The notes under the pieces were generated by a model that was given only the letters and a program-made list of their open reading frames with translations, searched no databases and was not told the origin of the DNA. This document shows, one piece after another, positions 3,128-60,750 of a DNA stretch of 64,000 nt (its first letter is position 1; each line of letters starts with the position of its first letter). This DNA is from a virus. The stretch lies in IMG/VR virus record IMGVR_UViG_3300035698_017721, positions 1-64,000 of that record; one strand, 5' to 3'. Position numbers and translations under genes: made by a program.

Positions 3128-3850
3128 TTATTTTTCATTATATATACAGACAAGTAAATCTTTTTTTGTATTTATTTCAGAAGCTTTGACCTTTATCTTC
3201 TTTCCATCTCTAATAACTATTAAAGAATGATCATCCGTTACTATTATTTCCTTGCCACTTTTTGAGCGCATTCTATATTTCTTTTTTCGTACTTTGTGTC
3301 GTATGATACGTTTAACATTAGACCATTTCACATCACCATCCCAATTCTCTACAGATACATTACCTTCTGGTAGTAATACTAATTCATTACCCCGTTCATC
3401 ACTAGTATAGCCATGCTTTGCATACAAATTCCAAAAATCTTCTATTGATATAGCACCAAGTGATTTATCCATTATCATCGATGATCGATCTACGGAATCA
3501 GTATCCGAGTAGATATTAACTGGTCTAGTAACTTCAGTAACTTTTGTAAGTCCAAGCTTCTCATGTAATTCGGTATCTAAGTGCCAGAATCGGTTGAAGT
3601 AAGCATTGATCACTCGCTCAGCAAACTTAATAAGATCCTGACCTTGAAGTGTAACAGTCTCAGCAACTTTAGAATTGAAACACACCAACCACTTATTACC
3701 CATGGCTCCATAGATCGAGTTAATCGTAAGCTTAATTGCTTGCTCCTCGTTCTTCCATTCGTTGGACTGGTACTTCATTCTAACGAGCTCAGATTCGATC
3801 TCTGCTCGAGTGCATGTTGCCAGATCTATGTTTGTGTATTGTAATTCCAT
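3128..3850 (-). CDS. DNA polymerase (gp43-like) middle piece fused to N-terminal half of a split intein
   Basis: Residues 1-118 are the fingers/palm of a family-B polymerase: motif B (KLTINSIYGAMGN, about residues 40-52) and the first half of motif C (YSDTD, ending at Asp118). The intein begins at Ser119 (SVDRSSMIMD, block A). Block B (VTDDHSLIVI) lies near residue 208, and the intein half ends at residue 240. Insertion at DTD/S is the classical pol-c site of archaeal and viral polymerase inteins. The catalytic Asp pair is therefore incomplete until this piece is spliced to the piece at 934-1941. It begins in the fingers, so exonuclease and motif A must come from 35534-36955. The stop is TAA, 11 nt before the endonuclease gene. 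Confidence 0.9.
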   Translation of the reverse strand: MELQYTNIDLATCTRAEIESELVRMKYQSNEWKNEEQAIKLTINSIYGAMGNKWLVCFNSKVAETVTLQGQDLIKFAERVINAYFNRFWHLDTELHEKLGLTKVTEVTRPVNIYSDTDSVDRSSMIMDKSLGAISIEDFWNLYAKHGYTSDERGNELVLLPEGNVSVENWDGDVKWSNVKRIIRHKVRKKKYRMRSKSGKEIIVTDDHSLIVIRDGKKIKVKASEINTKKDLLVCIYNEK

Positions 3851-3865
3851 TCTATTCTTTGTTAA

Positions 3866-4069
3866 TCATTTACCGCTTATTATTGCAGCTAGTAGTATTC
3901 CCAGCAATCCGAAAATTGCCAGCCCTATTGCGAAAGCCCACATCCACCAAAAAGGAAGCGTCACCCAGAACCAAGACCAATCAATAACATCATTCAGTTT
4001 AAGTATCACAAAAAGGATACCTAAAAGGAAAGACACAGAGATTGTTTTGCCTTGATGTCGTCTGCTCAT
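3866..4069 (-). CDS. small two-helix membrane protein (67 aa)
   Basis: Contains two strongly hydrophobic segments (about residues 12-24 and 33-64) separated by a Trp-rich turn (WSWFWVTLPFWWMW). A short 'LKLxxVIxWSW(W/F)WV' pattern is familiar from small phage membrane proteins of unknown role. It overlaps the wHTH gene start by 4 nt. It could be a holin or superinfection-type inner-membrane protein; nothing proves this. Confidence 0.65.
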   Translation of the reverse strand: MSRRHQGKTISVSFLLGILFVILKLNDVIDWSWFWVTLPFWWMWAFAIGLAIFGLLGILLAAIISGK

Positions 4070-4335
4070 GGCTTCACGATTTGCCAGTGATAAACTGCAA
4101 TATCAGAATGCCTAGTCATTCGTTTACCAATGCTTTCAACAAGACCTAATTTCTCTAGTTCGTTCCTTCGACCAGTTACCCGGTTAATGGTCCACTCCAG
4201 ATATTCAGCGATGTCAACATCACAACAAGTTTTCAATTTCTTGATTGCTCCATAAACATCTCTCCTTTTTTCAGGAAGGCTCTTGATGATTTTCTTGTAA
4301 GCCTTTTTGCTTGTGTCTTTCACGTTAGTTTTCAT
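4066..4335 (-). CDS. winged-helix DNA-binding protein (89 aa)
   Basis: Residues 27-75 read as a winged helix: a helix (KRRDVYGAIKKLK), a recognition-type helix (WTINRVTGRRNELEKLGLV) and a wing ending in YHWQIV. This resembles the small wHTH proteins common in phage replication and regulatory regions. It is coupled by ATGA overlaps to the membrane-protein and KTSC genes. It probably acts as a DNA-binding regulator; the target is unknown. Confidence 0.6.
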   Translation of the reverse strand: MKTNVKDTSKKAYKKIIKSLPEKRRDVYGAIKKLKTCCDVDIAEYLEWTINRVTGRRNELEKLGLVESIGKRMTRHSDIAVYHWQIVKP

Positions 4336-4589
4336 GCGTCTGTTTTTGTGTAGTCGTAATTGTCCTTGATGTGATTGATAAAGTACTGACCATGCGAAGT
4401 GGCATGAAGCAATCCAAGAAATACCATTTCTGGAACATCTTCAAATGTATACTTGACACCATTTTGAAATGACATGTCTAATACACCTGTTCTCTTCGTA
4501 GGATCAATGGCAAACTGAGTGCTCTCGATAACTTGAGATTCAAGTTCTGCTCCGTACTTTACTAATTTTGTGTGTGTTGTTGTACTCAT
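4332..4589 (-). CDS. KTSC-domain protein (85 aa)
   Basis: The C-terminal 60 residues follow the KTSC pattern: a beta pair ending in F-x-N-G-x-x-Y-x-F (SFQNGVKYTFEDVPE), then a helix (EMVFLGLLHATSHGQYFINHIKD). KTSC domains occur in many phages and in lysyl-tRNA-synthetase-related proteins; the function is unclear. The gene is coupled by overlap to the RNase HII gene upstream. Confidence 0.7.
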   Translation of the reverse strand: MSTTTHTKLVKYGAELESQVIESTQFAIDPTKRTGVLDMSFQNGVKYTFEDVPEMVFLGLLHATSHGQYFINHIKDNYDYTKTDA

Positions 4590-5285
4590 AATAATTGGGT
4601 TGGTTTACTTAGGATACCCGTTAGGAATGTCTTACGATGCCACTTGGTAATTCCTGCTTTCTTTATACCCTCGATATGGGCCTTTGTTCCATATCCTGCG
4701 TTAGTTTCCCAACTATAATCCGGATATTTTTCCGCTAAAACCGTCATGAATTTATCTCGCTCAACTTTGGCAATAACAGAGGCCGCAGCAATCGAAGCGA
4801 ACTTATCATCACCTTTGATAATACACTTGTGAGGTACAGTTTCAAAATCCAAGAAATTTTCACCTTGTCTACCGTATGATTCAAAATAATTCCCATCAAC
4901 CAAAACAAATTCAACGATTGACGAAACTGAACCTTCTTCTGCAAACCCAGACCGATCCACAACGCCTATGGCTTGATGCATGGCCATCATTGTTGCTCGG
5001 AGTATATTTTGCTGATCTATAATTTCCGGACTCACCTGGCTCACCGAATAAGACACGGCATTTTCCTTGATATGCTCAGCAACTTCTTCACGAAGTTTCT
5101 TAGACATCTTCTTAGAGTCCCTTAACTTTGGATGGTGATAATCTTTGGGAAGGATAACTGCAGCGGCAACAACTGGTCCAGCCAGACAACCACGACCAAA
5201 TTCAGCCCACCTCATCTACACCGACAATAAATTCTAGTTCGGTAAGATGAGGTGGACAACGCTTTAAAAAATTAGTATCAATCAC
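4586..5285 (-). CDS. rnhB: RNase HII, reading frame interrupted within the active-site motif (possible translational bypass or pseudogene)
   Basis: RNase HII removes ribonucleotides from RNA-DNA hybrids. The long frame (ATG at 5215) gives FGRGCLAGPVVAAAVILP, then conserved DGN, KGDDKFASIAAASVIAK and YGT. It lacks the N-terminal strand and the catalytic Asp of the G-x-DE-x-GRG motif. That missing part is just upstream in another frame: GTG at 5285 gives MIDTNFLKRCPP and ends FIVGVDEVG before TGA at 5204-5202. Codon GGC (5207-5205) precedes the stop. Skipping 10 nt (5204-5195) to land after the matching glycine codon GGT (5197-5195) restores DEVGRGCLAG exactly. An 11-bp inverted repeat (CCACCTCATCT / AGATGAGGTGG) brackets the N-terminal segment and ends at the take-off site. 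An endonuclease gene lies immediately upstream. A dead gene or sequence error is the alternative. Confidence 0.75.
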
Positions 5286-5368
5286 ATTTTTTATACGTAT
5301 ATCAGTGTTTTAGTTTCATATATTTTTCCGTATTAACGAACTAGGTATATTTTTTATAGCAGGACCTA

Positions 5369-5376
5369 GATATATA
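5369..5376 (+). promoter_or_regulatory. GATATATA motif (putative late promoter)
   Basis: GATATATA lies 4 nt before the start of the endonuclease gene at 5381. The same motif precedes at least 15 other genes here. If it acts as a -10-like element, transcription would start at or near the ATG. Confidence 0.5.
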
Positions 5377-5380
5377 CAAT

Positions 5381-6241
5381 ATGAAAGATGTAAAAAGTGG
5401 GTATTGTAATTGTGGATGTAATGAAGAAACTAATATTTATAGGGGCAAACCAAGAAAATTTATAGCAGGACATCAAGCCCGTGGTGCTTGTAATTCGAGA
5501 TATAATGTCGAATTATCAGAGGAAACCAAGAAAAAAATATCAGATAAGAAAAAAGGAAAATTCATTGGATCTAATAATCCGTTTTTTGGAAAAACACATA
5601 CAAATGAAGTGAAAAAAATCATTAGTGAAAAAAATCAAAACCGAATTCGACATTTATCAGGGCTAACTAAAACATGCTTTAACCCTATATGTAATAAACC
5701 CTTTTATGTACCATTGTCCCGTGGTAATGCTTCGTATTGTAGTCGAGACTGTAAAGATCAAGATAACGCTAGGAGATTTTCGGGCGAAAATAATCCGTTT
5801 TTTGGTAAATTTCACTCTGATGAAGTTAAAGAAATAATAAGGAATCATACGTTATTACAACGTTCGCAAAATATTTTTGGACCTACCAAACCGGAATTAC
5901 TAATACAGAATTTACTTACCAAGTTAAATATCAAATTTATTACAGAACATCTTATTAAGAATAAATTTTGTGTTGATATTTTTATACCAGATTATAATCT
6001 AATTATATTTATTGATGGTTGTTATTGGCATGCTTGTGAAGAGCATTGCCCAACAGCAAAAAAACCGAAAACTGATAATGCTCGTATTCCGTATCTCACA
6101 AAGTGTGGATATAACGTAGAAATTATATGGGAACATGATATTACAAAGAATAAAAAATTTCCTGATGCAAAGCCAGAAAAAATATTAAATGACCTACTTC
6201 AAAAATATGTAATAAACACGACTAAATCTGGGTTTAGATAG
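5381..6241 (+). CDS. NUMOD3 / Vsr-like (EDxHD-type) homing endonuclease
   Basis: 286-residue protein with two NUMOD3 modules (GSNNPFFGKTHTNE near residue 66 and SGENNPFFGKFHSDE near 141) that bind DNA, and a Cys-pair finger between them (CFNPIC, YCSRDC). The C-terminal Vsr-like nuclease has FCVDIFIPDYNLIIFIDG, then CYWHACEEHC and VEIIWEHDI. The putative catalytic residues are Asp/Glu plus the His of WHA. It stands on the opposite strand to its neighbours, directly upstream of the broken rnhB gene, and ends in TAG. It is probably a free-standing intron-less homing endonuclease that targets rnhB or its flank. Confidence 0.85.
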   Translation: MKDVKSGYCNCGCNEETNIYRGKPRKFIAGHQARGACNSRYNVELSEETKKKISDKKKGKFIGSNNPFFGKTHTNEVKKIISEKNQNRIRHLSGLTKTCFNPICNKPFYVPLSRGNASYCSRDCKDQDNARRFSGENNPFFGKFHSDEVKEIIRNHTLLQRSQNIFGPTKPELLIQNLLTKLNIKFITEHLIKNKFCVDIFIPDYNLIIFIDGCYWHACEEHCPTAKKPKTDNARIPYLTKCGYNVEIIWEHDITKNKKFPDAKPEKILNDLLQKYVINTTKSGFR

Positions 6242-48239: not shown

Positions 48240-48313
48240 GGGGCTGTAGTTCAGCTGGTAAGAACGCCGATCTCTAAAATCGGATGTCGCGGGTTCGAGC
48301 CCCGTCAGCCTCG
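48240..48313 (+). tRNA. tRNA-Sup (CUA), amber suppressor
   Basis: Acceptor GGGGCTG / CAGCCTC; anticodon arm CCGAT-CTCTAAA-ATCGG gives CUA, which reads the UAG stop codon. D- and T-arms normal. The amino acid charged is not clear. Confidence 0.85.
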
Positions 48314-48318
48314 CAAAT

Positions 48319-48393
48319 GGGAATATAGCTCAGTCCGGTTAGAGCGGGAGTCTCTAAAACTCTTCGTCGTGGGTTCGAATCCCACTATTCCTT
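48319..48393 (+). tRNA. second tRNA-Sup (CUA)
   Basis: Acceptor GGGAATA / TATTCCT; anticodon arm GGAGT-CTCTAAA-ACTCT; anticodon CUA. Sequence differs from the first, so it is a second gene and not a recent copy. Confidence 0.85.
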
Positions 48394-48511
48394 CTACATT
48401 TATTAACCCTAAAAACAAAGCCATGAAATAGGTAAGCAGAGGACCATAATTTGAATCGAGTGAATCGAAGAGTACAAACAATTCAAACAACAAAATTCAA
48501 AAACAATAGTC

Positions 48512-53945: not shown

Positions 53946-54824
53946 ATGCCAAGAAAGGAAAAAGAGTACCACGTCATTTATAAAACGACGTGTAAATTGA
54001 ACGGGAAGTATTATGTAGGAATGCATTCTACGGATGATTTGAAGGACGGATATTTAGGATCTGGAACATATCTTAGAAAATCTATACGGAAGCATGGAAA
54101 AGAGAATTTCGAATATGAAATTTTAGGGTTCTTTGAAAATAGAAAAGCGTTAATTGATCGTGAGATTGAATTAGTTAATGAAGATCTGATACAAGATTCA
54201 ATGTGTATGAATCTTAAACCGGGAGGTAAAGGTGGTTTAGGCGGTATGAAAACAGTTAGAGACAAAAATGGTTTTTGCTTTAATGTATTCAAAGATGATC
54301 CACGTTTAAAAACGGGTGAGGTTGTCAGTGTAATGAAAGGATTGATTATTGTAGTTGATGAATTCGGTAAAAAACATGCGGTTAAAAAAACAGATGCACG
54401 ATATTTATCCGGCGATTTAGTATCTCCATTAAAAGGTAAATTGATGGCAAGAGATAAAAATGGTAAAGTTAGCATATTATCAACAGATGATCTTCGTTTA
54501 AAAACCGGTGAATTTGTACAGCAAACAACAGGATTTGTGACGGTTAAAGATAAAAAAGGAAAAATATTACATGTGTCTATTAACGATAAGAGATATTTGT
54601 CCGGTGAATTAGTAAGTATATGGAAAGATCGTAAACATTCAGAAGAGACAAAGAAAAAAATAGGATTAAAGAATTCAATAGCTCAACAAGGTAATAAGAA
54701 TTCGCAATTTGGTAAGATTTGGATCTATAATGTTGAGGAACAAAGGTCAAAGAAAATATCATCGGATGAATTAAGGGAACATTTGGATCTTGATTGGATA
54801 AAAGGTAGAAAAATAAACTTTTGA
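53946..54824 (+). CDS. GIY-YIG homing endonuclease with four tandem C-terminal repeats
   Basis: YHVIYKTTCKLNGKYYVGMH is the GIY...YIG start; GSGTYLRKSIRKHG supplies the Arg and Glu side. After it come four ~30-residue repeats with the pattern V-x-DKNG ... D-x-RL-x-(T/S)GE-(L/V)VS (for example DKNGFCFNV, DEFGKKHAV, DKNGKVSIL, DKKGKILHV). A NUMOD3-like end (GKIWIYNVEEQRSKK) follows. It lies in the tRNA cluster. Confidence 0.85.
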   Translation: MPRKEKEYHVIYKTTCKLNGKYYVGMHSTDDLKDGYLGSGTYLRKSIRKHGKENFEYEILGFFENRKALIDREIELVNEDLIQDSMCMNLKPGGKGGLGGMKTVRDKNGFCFNVFKDDPRLKTGEVVSVMKGLIIVVDEFGKKHAVKKTDARYLSGDLVSPLKGKLMARDKNGKVSILSTDDLRLKTGEFVQQTTGFVTVKDKKGKILHVSINDKRYLSGELVSIWKDRKHSEETKKKIGLKNSIAQQGNKNSQFGKIWIYNVEEQRSKKISSDELREHLDLDWIKGRKINF

Positions 54825-54882
54825 TTTCGAAACTTTTTGTGATATGTATGATACATAGTGTATAAACATAACAATACACAAA

Positions 54883-55101
54883 ATGGAATTATCAGAAGTA
54901 AACAGTAATGCAACAATAGACGTAGAATCTTTAGATGGGTGGGAAGATGGAGAAATATCTATTAAGTCAACAAGGAAATTGCGAAGTTTTCTTGAAACAT
55001 ATTTAGGAAATAGCCAGTTGAAATTGGATAACATATCTGTCAAATCACTAGGTAGATATGGTAATTTTCAGAGTTTTTGTGATTGTAGTGATGATTTTTA
55101 A
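54883..55101 (+). CDS. hypothetical protein (72 aa)
   Basis: Acidic small protein (ATIDVESLDGWEDGEIS) ending CDCSDDF. Immediately precedes tRNA-His 1. No motif. Confidence 0.55.
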   Translation: MELSEVNSNATIDVESLDGWEDGEISIKSTRKLRSFLETYLGNSQLKLDNISVKSLGRYGNFQSFCDCSDDF

Positions 55102-55104
55102 TAT

Positions 55105-55179
55105 GGTGGTTGTAGTTCAGTTGGTTAGAACGCCTGGTTGTGGTCCAGGAGGTCGTCGGTTCGAGCCCGATTTTCCACC
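55105..55179 (+). tRNA. tRNA-His (GUG), copy 1
   Basis: Begins with an extra 5-prime G as in tRNA-His; anticodon arm CCTGG-TTGTGGT-CCAGG, anticodon GUG. Acceptor GTGGTTG / TTTCCAC has two T-T mismatches, so it is poorly paired. Confidence 0.8.
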
Positions 55180-55181
55180 CA

Positions 55182-55260
55182 AAAGACGAACGGTCTAATT
55201 CTTAAGTAGCGGCGAGCGAATAAGAATGTGACACGAATTCAGCAAGTCTTACAAACCGTT
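55182..55260 (+). ncRNA. 23S-rRNA-like hairpin RNA between the tRNA-His genes
   Basis: A perfect 7-bp stem ATTCTTA (55198-55204) / TAAGAAT (55221-55227) closes exactly the loop AGTAGCGGCGAGCGAA. That loop is identical to a conserved hairpin loop in domain I of bacterial 23S rRNA. The upstream AAAAGA and ATTC also keep the E. coli order and spacing from memory. AAGAC / GTCTT and AACGGT / ACCGTT around it could form an H-type pseudoknot. No gene is present. Confidence 0.55.
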
Positions 55261-55299
55261 TCAGATCGTACGATTTTCGGAGCGTGAATGGCTATTTAT

Positions 55300-55378
55300 G
55301 GTGCATGTAGCTTAGTTGGTCTAAAGCGCTAGTTTGTGGAACTAGAGATCGTGGGTTCGAGACCCATCTTGCACACCA
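55300..55378 (+). tRNA. tRNA-His (GUG), copy 2
   Basis: 5-prime extra G, acceptor GTGCATG / CTTGCAC (one T-T), anticodon arm CTAGT-TTGTGGA-ACTAG, T-arm GTGGG-TTCGAGA-CCCAT, CCA encoded. Independent of copy 1. Confidence 0.85.
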
Positions 55379-55390
55379 AAATAAAAGGTT

Positions 55391-55864
55391 ATGGAAATTG
55401 AAATTGTTGAAGAAGAATCTTACGAAGGTGAAATTGCTCGATTAAGGTTTGAGGAACGCCGAGAGGATTTCCTTAAGAATGGTAATGATTTTGTAAGGAA
55501 TGCGTCAATTTATGATGATGCTTTATCATATACATATGGTTTAGCAGAGGAACATTCGGAAACCGTTGGTATTCCTGTTCTTCGTTTAGCACGCCTAATG
55601 GCTTTAGTAGTCATGCGATCTAAACTTGGAATGGATATTGTAGATCTGAATTTACCACCAACCTTTAATTCCACAAGGGTTGTTAAGAAAAATACTGGTC
55701 GTATTGCTCCAACTGTTGCGATTCTTGACAAGCTGGAGAAGGTTGCATATTTGATCAACACATCAGATGAAGTGTTTTACTTCAGTAGTGTGAAAGGATA
55801 TAAAGATTTTAGAAGGGTATATGCTCCCCTCGTTAAAGAAGCATATTGTAAATATAAAGACTGA
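55391..55864 (+). CDS. hypothetical protein (157 aa)
   Basis: Soluble alpha-helical protein starting MEIEIVEEESYEGEIARLRF. Directly precedes the HisRS-like gene, with 5 nt between, so probably co-transcribed. Function unknown. Confidence 0.6.
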   Translation: MEIEIVEEESYEGEIARLRFEERREDFLKNGNDFVRNASIYDDALSYTYGLAEEHSETVGIPVLRLARLMALVVMRSKLGMDIVDLNLPPTFNSTRVVKKNTGRIAPTVAILDKLEKVAYLINTSDEVFYFSSVKGYKDFRRVYAPLVKEAYCKYKD

Positions 55865-55869
55865 AAGTC

Positions 55870-56491
55870 ATGGTTAGAGGAACAAGAGTACTTATTGGAA
55901 ACGAGGCTATAAACTACGTTAAGGCGATAGATTCGATACGCTCATGTCTTCATCGCAGCAGGCTATCAAGAAATCATTTTACCTAATCTGTGGGAACAGA
56001 AGACGTTCACAGATAAGGCTGGTCCAGAGATCCTGGGTCAGATGTATACATTCAATGATAAGAAGGGTCGGGAGATCTGTTTATTGCCAGAGGCTACGGC
56101 CGTTGTCCAAGAGCTATTCAAAACTCAATGGCAGAATGCAATGAAGAAACCGGTCCGAGTGTTCTACACTCAGAAATGTTATAGGTACGAAAGGCCACAG
56201 AAAGGACGATACAGGGAATTTACCCAGATCGGATTGGAAAGGCTCGGAGGCACTGATGGCAAGGAAGAGGTAATAGGACTCCTTAGAAGCTGTCTAAACA
56301 GCTTTAATATTGATTATAAGCTCAACGATACGGTCAAACGTGGTCTAGACTATTATGTCGAAGACGGGTTTGAAGTAGAGGTGGAATCCCTTGGTGCACA
56401 AAAGCAGATCGCCGGTGGTGGTCGTTACGATTGTGGAATTGGGTGGGCCATCGGTTTGGATCGGATTTTACTTCTACTTAATCAAAAATAA
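55870..56491 (+). CDS. compact histidyl-tRNA-synthetase-like protein, apparent +1 frame break
   Basis: Class II aaRS core. ATG 55870 gives MVRGTRVLIGNEAINYVKA; the frame then shifts by one base near 55939 (ATACGCTC), continuing VFIAAGYQEIILPNLWEQ. Motif 2 is FYTQKCYRYERPQKGRYREF, the His-binding RGLDYY, AGGGRYD and motif 3 GWAIGLDRILLL follow. About 206 residues in total, roughly half the usual 420. The insertion domain and C-terminal anticodon-binding domain are missing. Two tRNA-His genes lie just upstream. It may charge a phage tRNA, act as a HisZ-like paralogue, or be decaying. Confidence 0.65.
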
Positions 56492-56554: not shown

Positions 56555-57250
56555 ATGGAAAGTGGAATATACAAAATAACAAATTTGCTAAACGGTAAAA
56601 TTTATATTGGAAGCACAAGTAATTTTGATTATCGAAAATATAGTCATGAAAACAAAGAAAATAACACCGTTATATCACGGGCCATTATTAAATATGGTTG
56701 GTCTAATTTTTCCTTTGATATATTAGAATATTGTAAACCAGAATTTCTTGCTGAAAGAGAAAATTATTATTTTGATTTATTACAACCATTTGTTGAAAAT
56801 AACGGATATAACATATTAAGAACTGCAACAAGTAATGGGTGGTTGGGTCATAAACACACTGAGGAATCTAAAAAGAAAATGTCAATTAGTCGTTTAGGCT
56901 TAATACCGTGGAACAAAGGTAAGAACGGGTTACAAAAAATGAGTAATGAAGAACGGATAGCAAGATCTAAAAAATATAAAGGAACCGGTAATCCCTTCTA
57001 TGGAAAAACTCATACAGAGGAAACAAAGAAAAAATTAAGTGAACATGCTAAAGTAAGAGATATGTCACATTGTAATAAAAAGGTTATACAAATTGACAAA
57101 AAAAATCTAAGCGAAATTAAAATTTGGGATAGTATTTCAGATGCCAGTGAAGAAATATTTGGTGATCGAAAACGTAGCAACATAACAGCAGCATGTAATG
57201 GCAGAGTAAAATCAGCCGGTGGATTCTATTGGTCGTACTTGGGCAATTAG
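56555..57250 (+). CDS. GIY-YIG homing endonuclease ending inside tRNA-Ile
   Basis: GIYKITNLLNGKIYIGSTSN, then AIIKYGWSNFSFDILEY with Arg and AERENYYFD Glu. NUMOD3 modules (GHKHTEESKKKM, GKTHTEETKKKL) and a NUMOD1-like end (SISDASEEIFGDRKRSN) follow. Its TAG stop (57248-57250) is part of the tRNA-Ile sequence. Confidence 0.9.
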   Translation: MESGIYKITNLLNGKIYIGSTSNFDYRKYSHENKENNTVISRAIIKYGWSNFSFDILEYCKPEFLAERENYYFDLLQPFVENNGYNILRTATSNGWLGHKHTEESKKKMSISRLGLIPWNKGKNGLQKMSNEERIARSKKYKGTGNPFYGKTHTEETKKKLSEHAKVRDMSHCNKKVIQIDKKNLSEIKIWDSISDASEEIFGDRKRSNITAACNGRVKSAGGFYWSYLGN

Positions 57251-59308: not shown

Positions 59309-59533
59309 ATGACTGTAATAAAATGTAAATCAGGAGTTGTCTTTTCGGCTTGTGTAACCAAGCATATTGATGCAAGATGGAAACTACAAGAGCTCTATTA
59401 TAAGGACCAAGGCTGTACTGTTGAAACACAAGAAAGCGTAACATTTGGCGATTGTAATTGTGAACATTGTAATACGTTAAATCACGAGTACGAAGAACTT
59501 ATTGAATCCGTAATAAAAGAATCATGGACGTAA
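59309..59533 (+). CDS. small Cys-rich protein (74 aa)
   Basis: MTVIKCKSGVVFSACVTKHI and a C-terminal DCNCEHCNTLNHEYEEL, suggesting a metal site. Start 59309 chosen over more upstream ATGs, which fall inside the previous gene. Overlaps the next start. Confidence 0.55.
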   Translation: MTVIKCKSGVVFSACVTKHIDARWKLQELYYKDQGCTVETQESVTFGDCNCEHCNTLNHEYEELIESVIKESWT

Positions 59534-60750
59534 AAAGAAAAATCATAATGGACATCAATAAAAGAAACGACATGGGCGTAGAAAGAAAAATCATAATGGG
59601 TGGAGGTACATTCCAGCCGATAGCAAATCATTTATCCTTATCGGCTCCGGCCTTTGGTAATACAGCCAAACAACTTTATGAATGGATGAAGGATATTCCT
59701 GGAACAGAATTGGCTCTTACCAAAATGGCCGATCCTAACAGTAATATGGTTACAAATCAAGACGTGGAAAAATATGTCTTGTCTCTATTGAAAGATCCGA
59801 CTGTTAAATTGATCGTGTGTAGCGTTGCCTTCTGTGACTATGAATACACTGATGTTAATTTCCATGGTGACCGATTCAAGGAAGTACATCCTACAGAGAA
59901 GATCATTGACCGGATTAGAAGAGTAAGACCCGATATTTTTCTAGTTGGATTTAAGACTACTACGAATGCTACAGTAGAAGAACAGCATTTGATTGGACTT
60001 AAAATGATGAAGAGATCTAAATGTAATTTGGTGTTGGCCAATGATACGATCACACGTAAGAACATCATTATCACACCAGAGGAATCTTATTATGGAGAGC
60101 ATTACAATAATCGTAATCGTACTTTATATGAGTTGCTCAATATGATTGAGATGCGGATGGATGCGACTTATACCAGGACAGAATTCATAGAATGTGCTAA
60201 TACATTTAAGATCAATATACTTTCACCCAATATGAGAAGTGTGCTTCACTATCTTGTAAATCATGGTGGATTCATTGAGAACAACGGTAATGGATTTACA
60301 CCTGGACATTTCTGTACACGATTGCAATCTGATGAGTTTGCATCGTCACAAAGGAAGGCAGACCACAATAAAGTATTTACTGAAGGTGTTTCACTGGTCA
60401 AAGTGGTAGACGACAGATTCCTGGTTACAGGAACTAGAAAGGCTAGTGTCGGTGCTAAGAGTCAGTGGGAGTTGCTAAAAGCCTACCCAGAGTATCAGAA
60501 CATCATTCATACACATAGTCCCATTAGATCCAGTTCATCGATACCTAGAGTATCCCAGAAGCCATATCAATGCGGTAGTCTCGAATGTGGAATGAACACG
60601 CTCAATGGAATGAAAGATTTCGGGGATGGTATTCAAGCAGTTTACCTTGATAAGCATGGACCGAACATCATGTTCAAGAATGATACCCCAGCTTATATGG
60701 TAGTAGAATTCATGCGAGACAATTTCCATATCGGTAGGAAAACGACATGA
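59524..60750 (+). CDS. CoaB-like (DFP) / class-II-aldolase-like fusion
   Basis: Residues ~24-190 resemble the phosphopantothenate-cysteine-ligase domain of Dfp/CoaB: KIIMGGGTFQPIANHLSLSA, VKLIVCSVAFCDYEY and FLVGFKTTTNATVEEQHLIG, NLVLANDTI. The C-terminal part (IIHTHSPIRSSSSIP, SLECGMNTLNGMKDFGDG) resembles a class II aldolase-like domain. A direct repeat at the N-terminus (MDVKRKIIM and MGVERKIIM) gives two possible starts. Such fusions may serve nucleotide or cofactor metabolism; the reaction is unknown. Confidence 0.65.
   Translation: MDVKRKIIMDINKRNDMGVERKIIMGGGTFQPIANHLSLSAPAFGNTAKQLYEWMKDIPGTELALTKMADPNSNMVTNQDVEKYVLSLLKDPTVKLIVCSVAFCDYEYTDVNFHGDRFKEVHPTEKIIDRIRRVRPDIFLVGFKTTTNATVEEQHLIGLKMMKRSKCNLVLANDTITRKNIIITPEESYYGEHYNNRNRTLYELLNMIEMRMDATYTRTEFIECANTFKINILSPNMRSVLHYLVNHGGFIENNGNGFTPGHFCTRLQSDEFASSQRKADHNKVFTEGVSLVKVVDDRFLVTGTRKASVGAKSQWELLKAYPEYQNIIHTHSPIRSSSSIPRVSQKPYQCGSLECGMNTLNGMKDFGDGIQAVYLDKHGPNIMFKNDTPAYMVVEFMRDNFHIGRKTT

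What the first reader, a model, noticed from the sequence alone, without database searches (positions are those of the whole stretch)
55182..55260. 23S rRNA mimic hairpin between two tRNA-His genes
Seen: a 16-nt loop identical to a universally conserved 23S domain I loop, closed exactly by a perfect 7-bp stem of different sequence, with upstream AAAAGA and ATTC at the rRNA spacing, and flanking segments able to form a pseudoknot. A chance 16-nt match to 23S rRNA somewhere in the window is of order 0.1, but the correct closing stem makes chance unlikely. Inference: an RNA that imitates rRNA to bind a ribosomal protein, assembly factor or rRNA enzyme.
Basis: partly seen in the sequence, partly recalled or inferred. 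Interest (0 to 1): 0.8.

Follow-up and report, generated by a model that had tools for sequence, protein, structure and literature searches.

The report
Phage RNA hairpin copying ribosomal loop
Between two transfer-RNA genes this phage carries a small RNA hairpin whose loop is letter-for-letter a conserved loop of the large ribosomal RNA; the same loop, on different stems, recurs in RNAs of other large phages, so it is very probably a working piece of ribosome mimicry, although what it binds is not known.

Summary
Window 55198-55227 is a perfect 7-bp stem closing AGTAGCGGCGAGCGAA, identical to a 23S domain-I loop (about E. coli nt 240-255). Chance of this in the window is about 1e-5. The AAAAGA/ATTC spacing is off by one base and not shared; the pseudoknot is only possible.

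The hairpin is not unique. The same loop recurs in non-coding DNA of other IMG/VR phage contigs (window; L066, L035, L060, L008, L038, L044, L220, L263 with at least 5-bp stems; L034, L033/L047, L003/L007, L064 weaker). Stem sequences are unrelated but mostly keep the rRNA register, and one pair inside the loop changes G-C to A-U and U-A. The hosting RNAs differ: tRNA spacers, tRNA-like RNAs, and in L220 a Y-RNA-like RNA just downstream of a phage Ro60 gene.

Best explanation: a portable rRNA-mimic loop grafted onto small phage RNAs, docking a factor that recognises this 23S element. The mimic is well supported; partner and consequence are inferred. No Rfam family and no paper found describes it. 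TROVE is equally common in control phages, so Ro60 is not proven to be the general partner. No expression data exist.

The parts
55106..55180 (+). tRNA-His (GTG), upstream flank
   Evidence: ARAGORN and Rfam RF00005 54.7 bits
55183..55250 (+). predicted hairpin RNA filling most of the spacer (AAGAC/GTCTT base, three short helices, then the rRNA-like hairpin)
   Evidence: RNAfold of 55181-55256: -16.8 kcal/mol, z -2.6, 1/200 shuffles as stable; no transcript data
55198..55227 (+). 23S-mimic stem-loop: ATTCTTA + loop + TAAGAAT
   Evidence: sequence; alignment A1 with 13 other phage loci, covariation 0.654 against 0.278 shuffled
55205..55220 (+). loop AGTAGCGGCGAGCGAA identical to the conserved 23S domain-I loop (inner pairs 55209-55217 and 55210-55216)
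   Evidence: 16/16 to Salmonella 23S 238-253
55301..55378 (+). second tRNA-His (GTG), downstream flank
   Evidence: ARAGORN and Rfam RF00005 66 bits
56042..56491 (+). histidyl-tRNA synthetase-like ORF downstream (context)
   Evidence: Pfam PF00587 3.7e-14, PF13393 6.8e-13

Best explanation
The spacer between the two tRNA-His genes encodes a small hairpin RNA whose tip reproduces a universally conserved 23S domain-I hairpin: a two-base-pair GC/GC helix capped by GGCGA, flanked by AGUA/GAA, on a stem of free sequence. The tip is a portable module that large phages graft onto different small RNAs (spacer hairpins, tRNA-like RNAs, a Y-RNA-like RNA). The most likely action is molecular mimicry: released by tRNA processing from the tRNA-His precursor, the RNA docks a host or phage factor that normally recognises this 23S element, such as a large-subunit protein, assembly or quality-control factor, or a Ro60-type RNP handling rRNA. 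It would then titrate that factor or bring it to the phage RNA. Shown: the hairpin, recurrence, stem covariation, tRNA-rich setting, one Ro60/Y-RNA case. Inferred: expression, processing, partner and effect.
For: 16/16 loop identity plus perfect stem, joint chance about 1e-5. Recurrence: stems of at least 5 bp in the 1+1 register in 6 of 47 non-redundant non-rRNA loci with a pairable 5/13 position, against 1 of 91 controls (Fisher p 0.006; at least 4 bp 10/47 against 3/91, p 0.001, window excluded). On 14 phage hairpins all 7 stem pairs show two-sided changes; covariation 0.654 against 0.278+-0.041 shuffled (0/500) and at most 0.262 for slid partners. The loop-internal pair is G-C in most, A-U in L220 and U-A in L263. 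tRNAs within 1.5 kb in 9/47 against 3/91. L003 and L007, homologous tRNA-like RNAs that differ elsewhere, keep all 16 loop bases. L220: loop tips a YrlA-like RNA (E 0.0017), the third of five repeats, the first about 76 nt downstream of a phage TROVE/Ro60 gene. L044/L046: Ro60 gene about 3 kb downstream of the loop RNA.
Against: No expression or binding data. The window's 65-kb record has no TROVE gene, and TROVE is as frequent in control phage contigs (3 of 18) as in motif-bearing ones, so Ro60 is not shown to be the general partner. Relatives of the HisRS locus, including Sinorhizobium phage Phosso, lack the hairpin. No isolated phage in INPHARED carries AGTAGCGGCGAGCGAA outside apparent rRNA, and the T variant there is only in annotated coding genes of small phages. 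L035 has an A.C mismatch at the loop-internal pair. Some members have weak or offset stems (L003, L007, L064, L008).
Confidence: 0.5

Rival explanations
1. The loop is reused as a stable, nuclease-resistant or architecture-forming RNA module (like a GNRA or T-loop) that caps stems or makes RNA tertiary contacts, without any rRNA-binding partner.
For: It sits on very different RNAs and positions: D loop of a tRNA-like RNA (L038), anticodon region (L003, L007), acceptor-like stem (L220), spacer hairpins (window, L263, L066). Phage tRNA islands host other ornate RNAs such as GOLLD and ROOL, whose multimers rest on RNA contacts (PMC12286853).
Against: Thirteen of the sixteen loop bases are invariant across 14 phage RNAs, more than a simple cap needs, and they match the ribosomal loop exactly; RNAfold gives the isolated hairpin only ordinary stability (z -1.8).
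Confidence: 0.27
2. The window RNA is a divergent phage Y RNA: it binds a phage or host Ro60 protein and the rRNA-like tip steers or gates rRNA processing or decay by the Ro60/exonuclease complex.
For: L220: YrlA-like RNAs directly downstream of a TROVE gene, one tipped by this loop; L044/L046 and L038 phages also encode TROVE proteins; the HisRS-related contigs L018 and L021 encode TROVE. Bacterial Ro60 (Rsr) works in rRNA maturation and starvation rRNA decay, with the Y RNA as gate and tether to PNPase (PMC4726728).
Against: No TROVE gene in the 65-kb record; the window spacer gives no YrlA match; no shared Ro-binding motif found; no enrichment of TROVE over control phages.
Confidence: 0.15
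3. A fragment of host 23S rRNA picked up by the phage and not functional.
For: 16-nt identity.
Against: Identity stops exactly at the loop; the stem is unrelated to rRNA; no LSU match in Rfam even at E 10 and no other exact match of 11 nt or more in the spacer; unrelated phages show the same boundary.
Confidence: 0.02
4. Chance resemblance.
For: A 16-mer match to some part of 23S has expectation 0.06 in the window; some motif hits in the collection are plainly chance inside genes.
Against: Joint chance with the stem is about 1e-5; recurrence and covariation.
Confidence: 0.02

Closest known systems
23S rRNA domain-I hairpin (about E. coli nt 240-255)
   Same: loop identical; the register of one unpaired base on each side of the closing stem is kept in most members; the inner pair covaries as it does between the bacterial (G-C) and eukaryotic/archaeal (A-U) rRNA forms (rRNA forms from general knowledge)
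   Different: stem sequence unrelated; no surrounding rRNA domain; sits on tRNA spacers, tRNA-like or Y-like RNAs
Bacterial Y RNAs (YrlA, Rfam RF02553) with Ro60/Rsr
   Same: small structured RNAs with RNA mimicry (tRNA-like part); the L220 loop carrier matches YrlA and lies beside a TROVE gene
   Different: matches are below the curated score (28-33 against 69 bits); the window RNA gives no YrlA match and no TROVE gene is in the record
rRNA mimicry in ribosomal-protein mRNA leaders (from general knowledge)
   Same: an rRNA binding site copied into another RNA so that an rRNA-binding protein binds it
   Different: here in phage non-coding RNAs, not in leaders of ribosomal-protein genes; no protein identified
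GOLLD and ROOL RNAs
   Same: phage non-coding RNAs in or near tRNA islands; GOLLD is reported to pull down ribosomes (PMC12286853)
   Different: hundreds of nt with conserved global folds; Rfam gives no GOLLD/ROOL match in the window or in the scanned motif loci

Membership tests
23S rRNA (LSU) fragment | rRNA sequence or structure beyond one loop | tested here: not met
   cmscan E up to 10 of 54800-55500 gives only tRNAs; the only exact match of 11 nt or more in the spacer is the loop itself
phage 23S-loop hairpin module (proposed here) | loop AGTANYGGCGAGNGAA with pairable positions 5 and 13 | tested here: met
   window loop AGTAGCGGCGAGCGAA, G5-C13
phage 23S-loop hairpin module (proposed here) | closing stem of at least 5 bp in the rRNA register, in non-coding DNA | tested here: met
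   7 bp in register 0+0, 6 bp in 1+1; longest open frame through it 38 codons
Y RNA (YrlA, RF02553) | covariance-model match of the RNA | tested here: not met
   the motif spacer gives no match; matches elsewhere in the record overlap tRNA genes, and ordinary control genomes also give sub-threshold YrlA hits
Y RNA (YrlA, RF02553) | Ro60/TROVE protein encoded with it | tested here: inconclusive
   absent from the 65-kb record, which may be a fragment
Y RNA (YrlA, RF02553) | binding to Ro60 | not testable with these tools
   needs biochemistry
GOLLD / ROOL | match to the Rfam models | tested here: not met
   not among the matches

The most novel reading that the evidence does not exclude
Large phages carry a toolkit of small non-coding RNAs (tRNA-spacer hairpins, tRNA-like RNAs, Y RNAs) tipped with exact copies of conserved 23S rRNA loops (this domain-I loop; in single cases also GTPase-associated-centre pieces), used to capture or redirect host ribosome-binding, rRNA-maturation or rRNA-decay machinery, partly through phage-encoded Ro60 particles.
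Probability: 0.35. Interest if true: 0.9.

Novelty: new variant of a known kind. Interest (0 to 1): 0.7.

Why it matters
If right, phages copy ribosomal RNA as well as transfer RNA at single-hairpin scale, and do so repeatedly on different stems. That gives an entry point to an unexplored layer of phage control over host ribosomes, makes a testable prediction (the loop is a bait for its partner), and ties phage Ro60/Y-RNA particles to rRNA.

Tried and rejected
Captured rRNA: rejected, no further similarity. Group I intron or tRNA intron in L003/L007: considered because the loop follows the 5' part of a tRNA-Leu; not supported, Rfam finds no intron and the RNA folds as an enlarged tRNA-like structure. 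Mitochondrial LSU for L033/L047/L064: considered, no rRNA match. Conservation at the HisRS locus: none in L017-L023. Loop capping an acceptor-like stem in bacterial genomes (genome contigs pattern): returned real 23S genes and a few apparent coding hits. GTPase-centre mimicry as a general companion: the H44 pattern outside real rRNA hits only L034 among non-coding structured loci. General Ro60 association: not enriched over control contigs. Ro-like GAWGCAG..TTACTTC motif of the L220 array: found only there and once in L014. Whole-spacer stability (121 nt): no better than shuffles; the shorter 76-nt part is. A masked-N BLAST query returned nothing because too little was left to score and was repeated in another form. 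The A1 alignment was chosen partly for its stems, so percent paired is biased; the two-sided changes and the slid controls carry the argument.

Full report
What was checked. The window (an IMG/VR virus record of 65,174 bases) has two tRNA-His genes at 55106-55180 and 55301-55378. The 120-nt spacer contains ATTCTTA-AGTAGCGGCGAGCGAA-TAAGAAT at 55198-55227. The 16-nt loop is identical to Salmonella 23S 238-253, about E. coli nt 240-255 by the annotated 23S start. The expected number of 16-mer matches to any part of 23S is 0.06, the chance of a flush 7-bp stem 1.9e-4. Rfam finds only tRNAs here, even at E 10. RNAfold gives a single hairpin over 55183-55250 (-16.8 kcal/mol, z -2.6), whose tip is drawn as AGUA / GC / GGCGA / GC / GAA, the pairing that the loop-internal covariation below also supports.

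Recurrence. Scans of viral contigs with AGTAGCGGCGAGCGAA, AGTARYGGCGAGCGAA, AGTARYGGCGAGTGAA and AGTAYCGGCGAGRGAA returned real rRNA, chance hits inside genes, and a third class: non-coding loci, mostly AT-rich and mostly in large contigs, where the loop is closed by a stem of unrelated sequence. The window has 7 bp (0+0), L066 10, L035 8, L060 6, L220 6, L008 6 (offset 1+2), L038 5, L044/L046 5, L263 5; L034 and L033/L047 have 4. The usual register, one unpaired base on each side, is that of 23S. Without rRNA and the window, 6 of 47 loci with pairable positions 5 and 13 have at least 5 bp in that register, against 1 of 91 controls (wrong first two bases, or unpairable 5/13); Fisher p 0.006, and 0.001 for at least 4 bp. 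tRNA genes lie within 1.5 kb in 9/47 against 3/91, nearly all on the same strand.

Covariation. On 14 aligned phage hairpins every stem pair has two-sided changes; the score is 0.654 against 0.278+-0.041 for shuffles (0/500) and at most 0.262 for slid partners. Inside the loop the 5/13 pair is G-C in 11, A-U in L220, U-A in L263 and an A.C mismatch in L035. Because members were chosen partly for having stems, the percent paired is biased upward; the compensating changes and the slid controls are the useful part.

Which RNAs carry the loop. In L263 it follows a tRNA-Met directly, as the window hairpin follows tRNA-His, and both sit on an AGAC/GTCT base. In L003 and L007 it lies between tRNA-Leu-like D-arm and T-arm sequences, in two homologous RNAs (111 of 135 aligned positions identical, many indels) that keep all 16 loop bases. 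In L038 it lies in the D-loop of a large tRNA-like RNA by sequence, although the unconstrained minimum-energy fold does not draw it so. In L220 it tips the acceptor-like stem of an RNA matching YrlA, the Y-RNA-like family (E 0.0017; its neighbour 7.6e-5; both below the curated score). That RNA is one of five repeats that begin about 76 nt downstream of a TROVE (Ro60) gene.

Ro60. TROVE genes occur in the contigs of L220, L044/L046 and L038, but also in 3 of 18 control contigs, and not in the other motif-bearing records tested. So the L220 case shows the loop on a Y RNA, but Ro60 is not shown to be the general partner. TROVE proteins in jumbo phages are known (PMC7824862); bacterial Ro60 acts in rRNA maturation and decay with Y RNA as gate and tether to PNPase (PMC4726728). 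No paper found mentions a copied rRNA loop, but the library is only partly complete and key Y-RNA papers are not held.

Other 23S pieces. L034 carries, about 110 nt upstream of its loop, a 54-nt segment 80% identical to the GTPase-associated centre (E 3.5e-6). The L044/L046 phage has three more short 23S-like pieces (21/21 of the GTPase-centre H43 hairpin, 17/18 of the region near H69-71, 11 nt of H44) within 3 kb of its loop RNA, upstream of its Ro60 gene. A pattern scan for H44 found no further phage case, so these are single cases.

Mechanism. The evidence supports a portable loop under sequence constraint acting as RNA. Most likely it is recognised by what recognises the 23S loop: a large-subunit protein, an assembly or decay factor, or a Ro-type RNP. 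Its place in tRNA transcripts would make it an RNase P / 3'-processing by-product with its own life. Titration or recruitment is inferred. The main rival is a purely structural module.

Novelty. rRNA mimicry is known in ribosomal-protein mRNA leaders, and tRNA mimicry in Y RNAs (general knowledge; Y-RNA background). A conserved 23S hairpin loop moved between unrelated phage RNAs was not found described.

Noticed in passing
L220 (G017, 156 kb phage contig) about 450-1260; L311 787-2436 (-): Phage Ro60/TROVE gene followed by five Y-RNA-like repeats; two look like circularly permuted tRNAs (Asn-like, Gly-like), matching YrlA.
   Followed up: partly
L034 10178-10226 (-): 54-nt segment about 80% identical to the 23S GTPase-associated centre (H43-H44) in a non-coding stretch with odd tRNA-like RNAs and a terminator-like hairpin.
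   Followed up: partly
L182 (G011) 3329-6000, i.e. G011 23.3-26 kb: Non-coding region with several short 23S-like pieces, tRNA-Met, tmRNA and a twister-P5 hit just upstream of a Ro60 gene.
   Followed up: partly
L062 6429-6642: Permuted tmRNA in a phage contig (Rfam RF04321, 71 bits).
   Followed up: no
window 48240-48394: Two tandem tRNAs with CTA anticodon (called tRNA-Pyl), perhaps suppressor tRNAs for TAG.
   Followed up: no
window 55870-56491: HisRS-like gene: the N-terminal part reads in a different frame from the 149-aa ORF, so it is frame-disrupted or has a sequence error.
   Followed up: no
window 53946-54824 and 56555-57250: GIY-YIG/NUMOD3 homing-endonuclease-like genes on both sides of the tRNA-His pair (first one weak).
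   Followed up: partly
window 59524-60750: ORF with a pantothenate-flavoprotein (DFP) domain and a weak class II aldolase match, perhaps a fusion.
   Followed up: no
L243 400-470: Loop AGTACCGGCGAGGGAA (C-G at the inner pair) between GGGGAGGT and ACCCCCC, possible further member; it lies in a long open frame.
   Followed up: no
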